NCBI GenBank assembly: GCA_030726915.1
Contig: JANRCR010000034.1
Coordinates: 1 to 56,929, forward strand
DNA length: 56,929 nt
Origin: Candidatus Nanopelagicales bacterium
GTDB lineage: Bacteria; Actinomycetota; Actinomycetes; S36-B12
Direction of reading: 5' to 3'
Part shown: positions 39,182 to 44,363 of the stretch, in pieces
Position numbering within the stretch: position 1 is the stretch's first letter
Layout of the letters: each line of letters opens with the position of its first letter
Notes under the pieces: generated by a model
Databases searched by the model: none
What the model saw: only the letters and a program-made list of their open reading frames with translations
Told to the model about the DNA's origin: nothing
Made by a program: the position numbers and the translations under genes

Positions 39182-39937
39182 TCAGGCCCTGCGACGGCGA
39201 CGGCGACGCGCGCGAATTATGGTCCAGGAGAAGAAATAGCCCATACCGTTGGTGGCCCAGTGCAGGCCCATCGGCGCGATCACGCTGCCGGACACCAGTC
39301 TCAGCCCGGCGAAGACAACACCGGCGATCGTCGTGGTGATGACCGTCAGGACCACGGCCAGGATGTTGCCCCGACGACCCTTGCCGACGACTGACCCCAG
39401 GGCCGCACTCTGCTCATGGGTGCCGATGGAGGGCAATACGTGCCAGAGGCCGAAGAGCACCGCCGAGATGATGATCGCCCAGACCACTCCGAATCGCCGC
39501 GCCAGCATGGAGAAGAGCACCGCTCGAAACGCGATCTCTTCAAACAGGACCGTGCCGAAGGGGACCTCGACCAGGGCTTGGAACATCAGCCGGGGCCCAC
39601 TGAGCTCCGCAACGCGCTCGTCCTGCATGGCATTGCGCCCGCGCCGGAATGTCGCGGCCACGAGATAGCCCACCGTGACGACGATGATGCAGCCCACTCC
39701 CCACAGGAAGCCGGGCACAAGGTAACTCCAGCCCAGGCCCATGTTCGTCCAGCTATTGCCATCAAGGAGTCCGATGGCCAAAAGCCCGAAGGAGCCTCCG
39801 AAAGCCCACAGCAGATAGTGCCCCTGGGGAGCTATTCGGTTGTTAACAATGTTGAAGGCGATGAGGACGACGATGACGAGCATCAGCGGCCACCACGGCA
39901 GGCCCGATACCTGCTCCGGAGCCGTGATGGTGAACAC
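39182..39937 (-). CDS. CPBP-family intramembrane glutamic endopeptidase (Abi/CAAX protease-like)
   Basis: About 251 residues with seven or eight transmembrane helices. Catalytic motifs: FEEIAFRAVLFS (EExxxR), FGLWHVLPS and GLHWATNG. It belongs to the family that includes Rce1 and MroQ; substrates here are unknown. The C-terminus is a run of arginines. GTG 39937 is chosen because it lies exactly six nt after TAGGCT, the leaderless spacing of this genome; GTG 39940 is the adjacent alternative. It diverges from TIGR03089. Confidence 0.88.
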   Translation of the reverse strand: MFTITAPEQVSGLPWWPLMLVIVVLIAFNIVNNRIAPQGHYLLWAFGGSFGLLAIGLLDGNSWTNMGLGWSYLVPGFLWGVGCIIVVTVGYLVAATFRRGRNAMQDERVAELSGPRLMFQALVEVPFGTVLFEEIAFRAVLFSMLARRFGVVWAIIISAVLFGLWHVLPSIGTHEQSAALGSVVGKGRRGNILAVVLTVITTTIAGVVFAGLRLVSGSVIAPMGLHWATNGMGYFFSWTIIRARRRRRRRA

Positions 39938-39943
39938 CACTTG

Positions 39944-39959
39944 AGCCTACGGCTAACGT
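39944..39959. promoter_or_regulatory. Back-to-back leaderless promoters for CPBP protease and TIGR03089
   Basis: Minus strand: TAGGCT (39949-39944), six nt, GTG 39937. Plus strand: TAACGT (39954-39959), seven nt, GTG 39967. Neither gene has a ribosome site. Confidence 0.5.
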
Positions 39960-39966
39960 GAGCGTG

Positions 39967-40692
39967 GTGACGCCCTACGCCGCCCTACGCCGACGCACCG
40001 GTGAGTCGCCCGCAGCGCCGCTGGTCACATACGTCGATCCCGAATCAGGCGTACGCATGGAACTTTCTGCGACCAGTCTGGACAACGCCGTCGCCAAAAC
40101 CGCCGGGCTCCTCCGAGATGAGTTGGACGTATCACCCGGTGATCACATCGCGATCCACCTTCCTTGGCATTGGCAGCGCGCCGTATGGCTGGGTGCATGC
40201 GCCGCCACGGAGACGGTCTTCGCGGCTGATGCGGCCCCCGTGGACTGCGCAGTGTGCGTCATGGACAGGCACCACCTCGACCAATCAGGTGGCGCTGGGG
40301 AAGACGTCCTCGTCTCGCTGGACCCCTTTGGCCTCCCTGACGGTGGGCCCATCCCGCCGGGGGTCACGGAGGCGGCCGTTGCGATGCGGTCGCATCCGGA
40401 TCGATTCAACGCCTATGTCGAGCCACGCGGCGATGCACCGCTCCTCGCCATCGGCGGTGGAGTCGTGACCTCCGACGCCGTCATGGAGATGGGCCACCAC
40501 CTGGCGCAGGTCCGTGGGCTCGCCCCGGGTGCACGCGTGGCCGTCCTCCCGGACGATCCTGATCGGGACATCCTGTTGCTGGCCGTTCCCCTCGCACTCA
40601 ATGGATCCGTCGTTCTCCTGGGTCGAGAGACGCCCCAGGTGCCCCGCCTGCTGTTGGATGAGGACGCCGTACTCACGAAGGAATCACCATGA
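39967..40692 (+). CDS. TIGR03089 family protein (AMP-ligase-like fold, incomplete)
   Basis: About 241 residues. The opening TPYAALRRRTGESPAAPLVTYVD and the mid-segment GLLRDELDVSPGDHIAIHLPWHWQ resemble the N-terminal subdomain of adenylate-forming enzymes, and the end, LLAVPLALNGSVVLL, corresponds to the next part. The C-terminal half and the ATP-binding P-loop are absent, as is normal for TIGR03089. Function unknown. The start is ambiguous among GTGs at 39958, 39964 and 39967. Its stop overlaps the next ATG (ATGA), coupling it to the Ser-x-x repeat protein. Confidence 0.8.
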   Translation: MTPYAALRRRTGESPAAPLVTYVDPESGVRMELSATSLDNAVAKTAGLLRDELDVSPGDHIAIHLPWHWQRAVWLGACAATETVFAADAAPVDCAVCVMDRHHLDQSGGAGEDVLVSLDPFGLPDGGPIPPGVTEAAVAMRSHPDRFNAYVEPRGDAPLLAIGGGVVTSDAVMEMGHHLAQVRGLAPGARVAVLPDDPDRDILLLAVPLALNGSVVLLGRETPQVPRLLLDEDAVLTKESP

Positions 40693-40931
40693 ACACCTCA
40701 CGGTGGAGCATCGCTTCGCACAACTCGGTGCTGTGCATGGGGTCACGCAACTCGGTGCTGTCCATTGGGTCCGTCGGTTCCGTGCTCTCCATCGGATCCA
40801 TCGGTTCGTGCGCGAGCGCGCTGTCGATCGGGTCCTTCGCCAGTGCCGTGTCCATAATGTCGAGCCTGTCACTCGGCTCGGTGATGTCCTCGCGAGCGGT
40901 CACCCGCCTGGTCAGTGCCCGACGTGGGTGA
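40689..40931 (+). CDS. Ser-x-x triplet-repeat protein (candidate beta-solenoid or fibre)
   Basis: 80 residues. From residue 4 to 67 every third residue is Ser, 22 triplets in a row, the sole exception being Cys16; the other positions are mainly Val, Ile, Leu, Ala and Gly. Typical units are NSVLSIGSV and GSVLSIGSI. The frame ends in a basic tail (RLVSARRG). No signal peptide or membrane helix. A strict three-residue period suggests a narrow helical coil or beta-solenoid with a serine ladder (inference). The ATG overlaps the TIGR03089 stop, so the pair is co-translated. I have seen similar 'SVLSIGS' proteins in other actinomycetes but know no function. Confidence 0.75.
   Translation: MNTSRWSIASHNSVLCMGSRNSVLSIGSVGSVLSIGSIGSCASALSIGSFASAVSIMSSLSLGSVMSSRAVTRLVSARRG
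40698..40889 (+). repeat. Coding tandem repeat of 9-nt period (Ser-x-x x22)
   Basis: The region encodes 22 successive triplets. Serine codons vary (TCG, TCC, AGC), so the peptide pattern is better kept than the DNA pattern, which argues for selection on protein. Confidence 0.8.
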
Positions 40932-40948
40932 GTCCCTCAGCGGGGGAG

Positions 40949-43900
40949 TTACAAGACCTTGGCAACACGGGTGCGACTACTGGCCACCGGAGTGCCGCCA
41001 TCCATCACAATCACACGCCAGCTGTAGGTCGTGCCCTTCCCTGTGACAGCGACACCGATGGCGAAGCGTCCGGAGGCGTCGGGACTGACCGAACCGCGGT
41101 CCTGCCAGGCTCCGCCGTTGACCTGTGTTTGCCTCAGCACGGTCAAGCCCGCTCGCGGCTTCTTGATGATCCCCGACAGCGTGACGAGGGTGCCATCTTT
41201 GACGTCACCGGCCGGGTTAGCCACGAGAGTGACACCGCCCTTGGGCAGTGGTGCCGATCCAACGACATCCTGGTCTGTGATGCGCGTGATGAAGGGGGAT
41301 TTGACCGTGGTGAAGCCCACCGCAGCACGGAACTTCCCGATGGAGAGGGTGCTCTTCCTTCCATCAAGGCTGCGTGCCGTGATCGCTTTGACCGATCCCG
41401 CTGCGTCACCCGGCTCGGGTTTGAGCTCCATGATGTCCGGCAGGCCGAAAAACTGCTGCACGCGAGCCTGAGTGATCGTCGCCGACCAACTGCGGTAGGG
41501 ATTGCCGGGAGCGTCGTAGCTCCAGTCATCCACGACACTTTGGGCCCACGGGACTCCCGCCCCACCCCATGCCTGCTGCGCCGAGATCGTGCGACCGCCC
41601 GTCGCCGCCGTGTAGAACGCATTGATCGGCTTGCCCTGGAAGAGTGCGGTGAGGCCGTTCCCCTCATTTTTGCGGGTGGCATCCACCGCTTCCGCCCACT
41701 GATTGGCGTCCCCGTATTGGCTCTCGGACAACCAACCGCGGAAGGTCTGGTCGTACTTGGGCCCGTCCCCGTCGTCCATGTGGCATCCGCAGTCGGCGTC
41801 GAGCCCGAGCGACACCTGCGAGAGGGCGTACGACCTCGAGGCGATTGCCTGTGCCTCCAGTGCTGCCGCCGGCCATGTGGGATTCACCTCCGCGATGCCC
41901 TTGAGGTATTCGTCGCCAAGACGCAGCGTGTTGATCACCATGAGACGGCGCCCCGCCGATGTCGTCGTCGTCGTGAGGTCGACGGTGCCGTAACGGTAGC
42001 GATGGCCGGGACTGGCAAAGGTCTCCCCCGCGCCTGCGACATTCAGCAGCGCGGGCGTCGAGCCGGCCGTCCCGGGATCACGCGTGCCGGACCATCGCAG
42101 CGTGACGGTCTTGCCGCGGCCGAGCAGACCATTGCGACCACCATCAACGCGCCTCACGGTGACGAATCGCCCCGACGGCGCGAAGCTCAGATGTGCGCCG
42201 ACACCGACGGTGACGGTCTTTTGCCCAAATCGCGCTTCCATCTGTCCGCCAGCACCACCGAGATCCTCCACTCGGGCATGTGCCTGGTTCGACTGCTGGA
42301 GGAGCGCGATTTTGACATCGACGGTGTCCGGATGGTCCGCGACCGATACCCCGGGGTAGTAGTACTCAACGATTTTGCGCGGCGTCCACCGCTTCGGGTC
42401 CTCGGTCGCCATGGCGAAGGCACCCCACTGGGAGAGCCCGACCCCGTGTCCGTATCCGGTGCCCTCGACCGTGAATTGCGCGGGCGGCGTGCACGGATCC
42501 GGAGGTGAGTCAGCCGTCGCCGCGATGCGCGCCGTCCCCGTCCACGGGAAGAGAGATTTGGTCCCGCTTGTCGCACGAATATCAAAGGTGTATATCCCCG
42601 GGGGCACGAGCCTGCCCCGACTGTCCCGCAGATCCCATGCCATGCGCACGGTCGCCGCTCGAGGCGTCGAGGCGGTCAGCGTCCTGACGGGATCACCACA
42701 GGCGTTGGAGACCGTGAGGGTCGCGTCCATGGGGCCGTTGGATCGCGGTGTCAACGTGATGGTGCGATCTGACCCCCAGGGGGTGCGGTCACCCCGGATG
42801 GAGGGGGGGAAGAAGTTGCGTCCCTGGCGTGCCGACACCGCGAGGCGGATGTGCTCAAGTGTGGGGCGGAGGAAGACTCCCGGGCAGGAGGTAGCACCCA
42901 CATCGCCGTGGCCGGAGATCGTCTTGGCGGAAAGTTTCTCACCCGGCCAATACAGGGACGTGGTGCCTTGCCCCGGTCCGGGACCTGCCGAGGTGAGCAC
43001 CGATGTCCCGAGCGGATTGACGTTGGCACTGTCGAACTTCCACGCGATGAGATCGCTGATGGCGTCGAGAATGGACTCCTTGGTGGGCTGATCCGGATCG
43101 AGTGAATCAGCATTGCCGAGGAAGGAGACGGCGAACGTCTCAGAGTTGAAGCCGGAGGTGTGGGCCCCCACCACATTGCGGTCCATCCCACCCGCTCGAC
43201 CCTCGTACAGGCGCCCGAAGCGATCGACCATGAAGTTGTAGCCGAAGTCATTGACCTTGATGCCCTCGGTGAACCAGGAGTAGACATTGCGCATCTGCTG
43301 CGCTGCCTGGCCGGGCGTGTAGTTGTTGGTCGACACCACGTGATGGACAAAGGCGACCTTGAGGGTGTCGGAATACGTGGTCGTGCCCCGACGCAGGGAC
43401 TCATCAGCGCCCCACTGGGCACGGGTGATGATTGTGGGCCTGCGCACCGCAGCCTGCGCGGTGGCTGCAGGGGTGTCCGCCGCGAGCGTGGCGTCCTCAG
43501 GCCGCTCGGGGTTGTCAATCATCGTCAACTCCGTACCAGCCGGGACGAGTCCCGAAGGGGTGTCAATGCGCACCTGCACCCCGGTGGCACCATCGGTGAC
43601 GACCGGCTCCGTGGCGAATCGCGCCCGCTGGCCCTCCTCGGTGTCCGGATCGGGGAGGTGGTCACTGACCGGTACCTCCATCCACGGCAGCCACTGCCCG
43701 TCCTGCTTCACCCTCAAGACGATGCGGGTCGCCGGATCGAAGGGCGCCGCCGCGGTGATGCCGACCAGCCCGAACGCCTCCGTCTCGGTCGCAGGGATCG
43801 CAGCCGCGGCGCGTAGATCGGGAGTCTTGGCCCGCGGTCCGGCTACGGCGACGCGCTCATGGGCATGGCCCTCACCCGCGATCGGGATCGGCGTCGTCGG

Positions 43901-44062
43901 CGCCGGGGTGGAGGCCAACGCCCCCGCAGGAATCCCCTCAAGGGCAAACGCCCGGACATCGGCCCGCACGGGCCCCGGGGGATCAGCAAAACTTGCGGCG
44001 ACGGGGAGAGTCAGCGTGGCCGGGATGACCAGGACGGCGGTCACCACCGCGAGAACTCTCAC
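40949..44062 (-). CDS. Secreted cell-wall protein: PGRP amidase + Ig-like + SpoIID/LytB domains
   Basis: About 1037 residues. The signal segment VRVLAVVTAVLVIPATLTLP is followed by an Ala/Pro-rich region. Residues ~205-400 form a peptidoglycan-recognition amidase (RAQWGADES; VAFVHHVVS; NVVGAHTSGFN; ATSCPGVFL) whose two His and one Cys match the zinc ligands. A FlgD-like Ig module follows (AWDLRDSRGRLVPPGIYTFDI). Then comes a SpoIID/LytB domain with GYGHGVGLSQWGA and EYLKGIAEVNPTWPAAALEAQAIASRSYAL, and a C-terminal beta domain. It would cut stem peptides and possibly glycan. The GTG at 44062 is the likely start; the frame continues to a TTG at 44098. Confidence 0.85.
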   Translation of the reverse strand: MRVLAVVTAVLVIPATLTLPVAASFADPPGPVRADVRAFALEGIPAGALASTPAPTTPIPIAGEGHAHERVAVAGPRAKTPDLRAAAAIPATETEAFGLVGITAAAPFDPATRIVLRVKQDGQWLPWMEVPVSDHLPDPDTEEGQRARFATEPVVTDGATGVQVRIDTPSGLVPAGTELTMIDNPERPEDATLAADTPAATAQAAVRRPTIITRAQWGADESLRRGTTTYSDTLKVAFVHHVVSTNNYTPGQAAQQMRNVYSWFTEGIKVNDFGYNFMVDRFGRLYEGRAGGMDRNVVGAHTSGFNSETFAVSFLGNADSLDPDQPTKESILDAISDLIAWKFDSANVNPLGTSVLTSAGPGPGQGTTSLYWPGEKLSAKTISGHGDVGATSCPGVFLRPTLEHIRLAVSARQGRNFFPPSIRGDRTPWGSDRTITLTPRSNGPMDATLTVSNACGDPVRTLTASTPRAATVRMAWDLRDSRGRLVPPGIYTFDIRATSGTKSLFPWTGTARIAATADSPPDPCTPPAQFTVEGTGYGHGVGLSQWGAFAMATEDPKRWTPRKIVEYYYPGVSVADHPDTVDVKIALLQQSNQAHARVEDLGGAGGQMEARFGQKTVTVGVGAHLSFAPSGRFVTVRRVDGGRNGLLGRGKTVTLRWSGTRDPGTAGSTPALLNVAGAGETFASPGHRYRYGTVDLTTTTTSAGRRLMVINTLRLGDEYLKGIAEVNPTWPAAALEAQAIASRSYALSQVSLGLDADCGCHMDDGDGPKYDQTFRGWLSESQYGDANQWAEAVDATRKNEGNGLTALFQGKPINAFYTAATGGRTISAQQAWGGAGVPWAQSVVDDWSYDAPGNPYRSWSATITQARVQQFFGLPDIMELKPEPGDAAGSVKAITARSLDGRKSTLSIGKFRAAVGFTTVKSPFITRITDQDVVGSAPLPKGGVTLVANPAGDVKDGTLVTLSGIIKKPRAGLTVLRQTQVNGGAWQDRGSVSPDASGRFAIGVAVTGKGTTYSWRVIVMDGGTPVASSRTRVAKVL

Positions 44063-44363
44063 TCTTGGAGGGTGCCCGACATATGACCAGGGTGGCAAGC
44101 CGACTCACCCAACTCAGGCGTCACTCTGATCACATTCCCAGGGGATTCTGCCGCGCGGAGGCTTGACGGCGGCGCGGCGCAGGCGTGTGTCATCCCAGGG
44201 GATTCCATGACCAGCCCCTCATCGGCCCGCGCGGCCGAGGAGGAACCGAGCCTCCCGGGCACGCGTCCCTCCTCCGTCGACGAGTCCGGCCGCCCTTACC
44301 CTGGAGTCGCCGAGGATTCGAGAAATCGGTGACGGGGTCGCCAGCCGGAGGGAGTTGCCACAC
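44063..44363. other. Intergenic region between the PGRP-SpoIID and LCP genes, with a repeated box
   Basis: About 300 nt without a convincing gene. It holds two copies of TCCCAGGGGATTC (44136-44148 and 44193-44205); each contains the near-palindrome ATCCC-AG-GGGAT or TTCCC-AG-GGGAT. TACCCT (44297-44302) is a possible -10 for LCP. A 41-codon frame (44207-44332) is open but has no other support. Confidence 0.5.

What the first reader, a model, noticed from the sequence alone, without database searches (positions are those of the whole stretch)
40689..40931. 80-residue protein built of 22 consecutive Ser-x-x triplets, coupled to TIGR03089
Counting from residue 4, residues 4, 7, 10 ... 67 are all Ser, with one Cys at 16. 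The intervening residues are small or hydrophobic. Serine codons alternate between TCN and AGC, so the pattern is kept at protein level. No described solenoid I know uses a strict three-residue Ser period; it could be a thin beta-solenoid or polyproline-II-like coil with a Ser/Cys ladder, or a modified peptide substrate. The four-nt overlap with TIGR03089, a truncated adenylating-enzyme-like fold of unknown role, makes a two-gene system plausible.
Basis: partly seen in the sequence, partly recalled or inferred. Interest (0 to 1): 0.85.

Follow-up and report, generated by a model that had tools for sequence, protein, structure and literature searches.

The report
Actinobacterial serine-every-third-residue small proteins
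The window holds a real gene from a widespread, unnamed family of small actinobacterial proteins in which serine falls at every third position for 18 to 30 triplets in a row; evolution keeps that pattern strictly, the protein's shape and job are unknown, and it is not tied to the neighbouring gene as first suggested.

Summary
ORF 40689-40931 (80 aa) has Ser at residues 4, 7 ... 67, with one Cys at 16; 50,000 shuffles gave at most 17 in-phase Ser against 22 observed. It is a coding gene of an actinobacteria-wide family: 66 of 166 genomes of its order, 284 confirmed matches in a species-level genome collection. Ladder positions over 79 proteins are 1793 Ser, 48 Ala, 22 Cys, 17 Gly, 1 Thr. dN/dS is about 0.06-0.26, and 16 of 20 ladder columns mix TCN and AGY codons. 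Length changes come in nine-residue steps. In 43 of 88 upstream regions a -10-like hexamer lies exactly 12 nt before the start codon, implying a leaderless mRNA. About a quarter carry a C-terminal membrane helix.

The TIGR03089 coupling is local: adjacent in 5 of 59 genomes holding both genes, all in one genus. No neighbour is shared across lineages. No Pfam, NCBIfam, PHROG or PDB family fits. AlphaFold2 does not resolve the ladder.

Best guess: a narrow, membrane-associated beta-solenoid with serine packed inside; beetle antifreeze protein is a period-three precedent. The family is secure; fold and function are inferred.

The parts
40689..40931 (+). ORF of the Ser-x-x protein, 80 aa, ATG to TGA
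   Evidence: Relatives found; frame +1 open in 104 of 104 genes while the best antisense frame is broken in 39 of 104; pN well below pS in every pair compared.
40698..40889 (+). Ladder of 22 triplets (residues 4-67), Ser at every third residue, Cys at residue 16
   Evidence: column-wise conservation in alignment A1.
40725..40805 (+). Three clear nine-residue units, SVLCMGSRN, SVLSIGSVG, SVLSIGSIG (residues 13-39)
   Evidence: x2 autocorrelation peaks at a lag of three triplets (r 0.28); unit profile S-[VIAF]-L-S-[IV]-G-S-x-G from 249 units; internal indels among relatives are 0 or +9 residues.
40749..40892 (+). 48-residue stretch without a charged residue (residues 21-68), mean hydropathy 1.22
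   Evidence: the median longest uncharged run in the family is also 48 residues.
40890..40928 (+). Basic C-terminal tail (residues 68-80, SRAVTRLVSARRG); about a quarter of relatives have a membrane helix after the ladder
   Evidence: Tail charge; C-terminal TM-like segment in 19 of 79 proteins; AlphaFold2 helix at pLDDT 86-91 in the Streptomyces relative.
40678..40682 (+). Shine-Dalgarno-like AAGGA, 6 nt before the ATG
   Evidence: Sequence (upstream printed). Unusual for the family: only 10 of 88 relatives have an SD-like 5-mer, while 43 of 88 have a -10-like hexamer at -12.
39958..40692 (+). Upstream gene, TIGR03089 family (AMP-binding-like), overlapping the Ser-x-x ORF by 4 nt; a local neighbour, not a required partner
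   Evidence: Family match; linkage counts.

Best explanation
The ORF belongs to an uncharacterised, actinobacteria-wide family of small repeat proteins: a ladder of 18-30 Ser-x-x triplets built from nine-residue units of the type S-V-L-S-I-G-S-V-G, then a W/R-rich end and, in some lineages, a C-terminal membrane helix. SHOWN: it is a coding gene, the ladder is selected at protein level, Ser is replaced almost only by Ala, Cys or Gly, length changes by whole nonapeptides, the gene usually stands alone, and its usual upstream signal fits its own leaderless promoter. INFERRED: the ladder forms a narrow beta-type solenoid whose small residue at each third position points into a tight core and is braced by Ser hydroxyls, leaving ridges of Val/Ile and Gly/Leu outside. 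Those ridges are covered by the membrane or by contact with other copies, so the protein would act as a membrane-associated self-assembling structural element rather than as an enzyme or a modified peptide.
For: Family and coding: relatives in 66 of 166 genomes of the order, 284 confirmed matches in genome contigs including Streptomyces, Frankia, Rhodococcus, Nocardioides, Actinoplanes, Acidimicrobiia and Solirubrobacterales, dN/dS about 0.06-0.26 and TCN/AGY mixing. Size limit at the ladder: S 1793, A 48, C 22, G 17, T 1; near-absence of Thr argues for packing and against generic hydroxyl modification. Period: hydropathy power at 120 degrees is 49.5 against at most 11.6 at any other angle sampled. 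Nonapeptide unit: x2 autocorrelation and indels of only 0 or +9. Composition leans to beta: V/I about 47% of x1, G 35% of x2, 4 Pro in 5485 ladder residues, mean P(beta) 1.02 against P(alpha) 0.95. Precedent for inward period-three small residues: C2, S5, C8, A11 in beetle AFP; inner serine ladders in the ice-nucleation protein model. Membrane: uncharged hydrophobic stretch and C-terminal helices in 19 of 79. Independence: promoter-like hexamer at -12, no shared neighbours.
Against: AlphaFold2 did not produce a solenoid: window protein mean pLDDT 58.6 with only a helix at 36-79; Streptomyces relative 58.0 with the ladder mostly below 60. The second model found nothing in the PDB library. A solenoid with such hydrophobic outer positions would be unusual in water. 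The nine-residue unit does not equal any solenoid coil size I know (12, 15, 16 or 18). The indel rule rests partly on MAFFT alignments, and the nine-residue step could also come from 27-bp slippage. No experiment bears on location or function.
Confidence: 0.38

Rival explanations
1. The ladder is not a solenoid but a membrane-inserted segment, one or two helices (possibly 3-10, which has three residues per turn) with Ser on one face, held by the basic C-terminal tail.
For: 48 uncharged residues with mean KD 1.22; best 19-residue window 1.57 in the window protein and at least 1.6 in 34 of 79 proteins; AlphaFold2 gives helix 36-79 in the window protein; C-terminal membrane helices in 19 of 79.
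Against: In an alpha helix a strict three-residue period rotates by 60 degrees per step, so it marks no face; long 3-10 helices are rare; V, I, G and S are poor helix formers; the ladder part of the models has low confidence.
Confidence: 0.25
2. The ladder is a low-complexity, mostly disordered or amyloid/silk-like segment whose period comes from repeat expansion and which works by weak self-association.
For: Composition is Ser, Gly and Val/Ile/Leu/Ala; the ladder is unresolved by AlphaFold2; repeat number varies (18-30 triplets).
Against: Disorder does not explain why Ser is held at every third residue with x positions diverging, codon boxes switching, and Thr nearly excluded; cross-beta strands would favour a period of two.
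Confidence: 0.2
3. The protein is a precursor of a ribosomally made, modified peptide, like the His-Xaa-Ser (Hxs) or TVGG (Tvg) systems.
For: HxsA4 profile resembles the ladder weakly: E 0.0087 for the window protein, 28 of 45 members at E up to 0.01, best 5.7e-6. Repeated-motif precursors exist (PMC9062424).
Against: 16.9 bits against a cut-off of 55 for HxsA4; no HxsB-type radical SAM enzyme in the genome; no neighbour conserved across lineages; modified peptides normally sit beside their enzyme.
Confidence: 0.06
4. A two-gene system with TIGR03089.
For: 4-nt overlap in the window; adjacency kept in 5 species of the genus; mild co-occurrence over the order, 59 genomes with both against 51 expected, Fisher p 0.002, not corrected for ancestry.
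Against: Outside the genus the genes are never adjacent; inside it three species hold both apart and two have TIGR03089 alone; 69 genomes of the order have TIGR03089 without a detected Ser-x-x gene and 7 the reverse.
Confidence: 0.04
5. Not a protein gene: a repeat or an antisense reading of another gene.
For: The antisense frame -B is also open over the window copy and shares codon position 3 with the + frame.
Against: +1 open in 104 of 104, -B broken in 39 of 104; promoter-like hexamer at fixed distance before the + strand start; TCN/AGY switching preserves Ser only in the + frame.
Confidence: 0.01

Closest known systems
Beetle hyperactive antifreeze proteins (TmAFP/DhbAFP, 12-residue coil TCTxSxNCxxAx)
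   Same: Small proteins of short tandem repeats with a small residue (Cys, Ser, Ala) at every third position; those residues point into the core (PMC8038014).
   Different: Twelve-residue unit, Cys-rich with disulfides, TxT ice-binding face, secreted, from insects. Here the unit is nine residues, mostly Ser, with Val/Ile and Gly/Leu between, no TxT, and no signal peptide noticed. No sequence match in the PDB.
Bacterial ice-nucleation proteins (16-residue beta-solenoid with internal serine ladders)
   Same: Inner serine ladders brace a repeat-built solenoid in the AlphaFold model (PMC9418140).
   Different: Two Ser ladders per 16-residue coil, 50-80 repeats, TxT and Tyr motifs, large proteins. 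Here Ser is at every third residue in 18-30 triplets.
HxsA4, His-Xaa-Ser repeat proteins (NCBIfam NF038313)
   Same: Ser at a three-residue spacing; the only NCBIfam profile that many members touch (28 of 45).
   Different: Far below the curated cut-off (16.9 against 55 bits), few His in the ladder (26 in 5485 residues), no radical SAM partner found.
TIGR03089 (AMP-binding-like family)
   Same: Adjacent upstream gene in the window and in four other species of the genus.
   Different: A separate gene family; adjacency is absent in all other genomes of the order examined.

Membership tests
HxsA4 (NCBIfam NF038313) | Score above the curated cut-off of 55 bits | tested here: not met
   16.9 bits, E 0.0087 for the window protein; best relative E 5.7e-6.
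HxsA4 (NCBIfam NF038313) | Neighbouring paired radical SAM enzyme (HxsB type, TIGR03978) | tested here: not met
   No match in the window's genome; no such neighbour cluster among 80 relatives.
Beetle-type antifreeze solenoid (TCTxSxNCxxAx) | 12-residue repeat | tested here: not met
   Unit is nine residues: autocorrelation at three triplets, indels 0 or +9.
Beetle-type antifreeze solenoid (TCTxSxNCxxAx) | TxT ice-binding motif and core disulfides | tested here: not met
   Thr 51 and Cys 36 of 5485 ladder residues; two Cys (16 and 41) in the window protein.
Beetle-type antifreeze solenoid (TCTxSxNCxxAx) | Small residue at every third position pointing inward | tested here: inconclusive
   Small residue at every third position is met (S/A/C/G 1880 of 1881); direction unknown because AlphaFold2 is not confident.
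Two-gene system with TIGR03089 | Conserved adjacency and co-occurrence | tested here: not met
   5 of 59 genomes with both genes have them adjacent, one genus only.
Any Pfam, PHROG or solved-structure family | Significant profile match | tested here: not met
   No Pfam match for the window protein and only scattered single-member hits at E 0.02-0.1 for relatives; PHROGs best E 0.006, one member; PDB best hits are Gly-Ser-Thr linker stretches at E 0.05 and above.
Beta-solenoid proteins in general | Stacked coils with parallel beta-strands | tested here: inconclusive
   Two AlphaFold2 runs left the ladder unresolved; composition and period are compatible.

The most novel reading that the evidence does not exclude
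The family is a new fold class: a nine-residue-per-coil (or 18-residue two-layer) beta tube lined by serine ladders with a hydrophobic Val/Ile/Leu outside. Set in or on the membrane it would be a serine-lined filament or even a narrow polar conduit. It would be spread across Actinomycetota as a solitary leaderless gene and would have gone unnamed because it is short and low in complexity.
Probability: 0.12. Interest if true: 0.9.

Novelty: new variant of a known kind. Interest (0 to 1): 0.6.

Why it matters
A strict three-residue period with a single small polar residue is rare and structurally demanding. A conserved family carrying it across Actinomycetota, from freshwater lineages to Streptomyces, without a Pfam or NCBIfam model and without a paper in the held library that shows its repeat strings in this context, is an accessible test case: 75-130 residues long, genetically isolated, and present in laboratory-tractable genera (Streptomyces, Rhodococcus). 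Solving one structure would show whether a serine-cored coil shorter than the known 12-residue solenoid exists, and whether this is a missing piece of the actinobacterial envelope.

Tried and rejected
TIGR03089 partnership: rejected from linkage counts. Conserved operon or maturase: all-against-all clustering of neighbours in 80 loci gave no cluster in more than 7 loci; the tightest are genus-level and unrelated to each other. HxsA4 membership: rejected. Mobile or phage origin: no match in plasmids, phages, or viral contigs. Antisense gene: rejected. AlphaFold2 on the window protein and on a Streptomyces relative with a membrane tail: no confident ladder; Foldseek on the second model found nothing, as expected for low confidence. 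Literature strings (LSIGSVGS, VLSIGS and the like) gave one hit, in a Rhizobium secretion paper, that I did not open; 'TIGR03089' is in no held paper. Fusions to domains of known function: none recognised by eye in 18 extra loci read by stop-to-stop frame; several have only a C-terminal membrane helix. A regular-expression measure of anchor distance gave 33, 42, 51, 60 and 69 residues plus a group at 54 and a negative group; on reading the sequences I attribute those two groups to the pattern matching the wrong place, so I rely instead.

Full report
Observation. The ORF at 40689-40931 encodes 80 residues. Ser stands at residues 4, 7, 10, 13, then Cys at 16, then Ser at 19 to 67 in steps of three. 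A shuffle of the composition never put more than 17 Ser in one phase in 50,000 trials; 22 are observed. Switching box by single changes passes through a non-Ser codon, so the residue is being kept.

It is a gene. Titles include Streptomyces, Frankia, Rhodococcus, Nocardioides, Actinoplanes, Cellulomonas, Acidimicrobiales and Solirubrobacterales. A contig titled Candidatus Nanopelagicales (L036) has the same length as the contig that holds the match in one same-genus genome (G055), which suggests the window comes from that order. Pairwise pN is far below pS (for example window against L002: dN 0.26, dS 1.34; L023 against L026: 0.10 and 1.72). The + frame is open in 104 of 104 genes; the best antisense frame, which shares codon position 3 and so could mimic the signal, is broken in 39.

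Anatomy. The family consensus is xxxSRWSIxSxNSxLSIGSRNSVLSIGSVGSxLSIGSIGSAASxLSIGSFASAxSxMSxLSxxSVMSWRxxR. Over 79 proteins the ladder positions are S 1793, A 48, C 22, G 17, T 1. The residue after Ser is mostly V/I, the next mostly G or L. Hydropathy has one dominant period, 120 degrees. The x2 residue repeats every three triplets (r 0.28 at lag 3, 0.15 at lag 6), and 249 units give the nonapeptide S-[VIAF]-L-S-[IV]-G-S-x-G. Between conserved anchors, relatives differ from the window by 0 or +9 residues only; this depends on MAFFT placement, and 27-bp slippage could also produce it. Other members elsewhere in the phylum are nearly pure SILSIGSAG or SIASIGSAG repeats. After the ladder comes a W/R-rich end. 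In 19 of 79 a membrane-helix-like segment follows, and AlphaFold2 predicts a confident helix there in the Streptomyces relative (block means 91 and 86 for residues 111-126).

Expression. Aligned on the start codon, 43 of 88 distinct upstream regions have xAxxxT exactly 12 nt before the start and 10 more one base earlier, against 0-6 at other offsets; only 10 of 88 have a Shine-Dalgarno-like 5-mer. From general knowledge of actinobacterial transcription this is the signature of a -10 element serving a leaderless mRNA. The window copy is an exception: it has AAGGA at 40678-40682 and overlaps TIGR03089, so here it is probably co-translated (inference). No consensus sigma-70 promoter was found in 39700-41200.

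TIGR03089. The upstream ORF is a clear TIGR03089 member. In the order, 128 genomes have TIGR03089, 66 the Ser-x-x gene, 59 both. They are adjacent in five genomes, all of the window's genus; two more share a contig at 24 and 380 kb. Three species of the genus hold the genes apart, and two have TIGR03089 alone. In the adjacent cases the flanking CPBP and SpoIID/amidase genes are also kept, so this is local synteny. Clustering the neighbours of 80 relatives found no gene present in more than seven loci; the genus-level ones are unrelated to each other (GT87, Rv2525c-like, a UvrD-like helicase, LysE, a thioester-domain protein).

How it may work. Three-residue periodicity with strict size limits marks a geometry in which every third side chain meets the same tight surroundings. 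Alpha helices do not give that; a polyproline-type coil is unlikely with 4 Pro in 5485 residues. The beetle antifreeze solenoid does give it: its 12-residue coil points residues 2, 5, 8 and 11 (Cys, Ser, Cys, Ala) inward (PMC8038014). Ice-nucleation proteins are modelled with inner serine ladders (PMC9418140). I therefore favour a narrow beta-type solenoid with Ser inside and Val/Ile/Gly/Leu outside, associated with the membrane or with itself. The weak points are plain: both AlphaFold2 runs left the ladder unresolved and drifted to helix, and the outside would be unusually hydrophobic. A membrane-inserted helix is the main rival, then a low-complexity self-associating segment. A modified-peptide precursor is disfavoured by the lack of any conserved enzyme, and near-absence of Thr argues against sugar or phosphate addition as the reason for the Ser (inference).

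Comparison. No Pfam model matches the window protein and relatives give only scattered weak hits. The only NCBIfam contact is HxsA4, far under its cut-off. PHROGs and the PDB offer nothing above noise. Plasmids, phages and viral contigs hold no relative. The family is therefore unnamed in the libraries used here; literature outside the held library was not searched.

Verdict. Existence of the family about 0.97; the specific fold and role much lower (0.38 for the stated explanation as a whole).

Noticed in passing
window 40949-44098 (-): A 1049-aa protein joins an Amidase_2 domain, a FlgD Ig-like domain and a SpoIID/LytB domain, an uncommon-looking combination of envelope-enzyme domains.
   Followed up: no
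window 39182-39940 (-): CPBP (Rce1-like) protease resembling Rv0804, kept next to TIGR03089 at 84-87% identity in four related species while TIGR03089 itself is only 49-56% identical.
   Followed up: no
L121 about 1106-1300: A different Ser period-three run, SAQSAQSVQSAQSAQSVQ, in a longer frame that has a hydrophobic stretch upstream; probably unrelated convergence.
   Followed up: no
L117, L118, L126, L127, L128, L129, L133: Distant members made of almost perfect nonapeptides SILSIGSAG or SIASIGSAG, several with a C-terminal membrane-helix-like segment.
   Followed up: partly
L072, L078, L084, L099, L100, L109: Rhodococcus/Nocardia members share a genus-level neighbourhood (GT87 glycosyltransferase upstream; Rv2525c-like glycoside hydrolase downstream in five of six), and most end in a conserved acidic tail like EEPELAxxxxAHxQT instead of a membrane helix.
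   Followed up: partly
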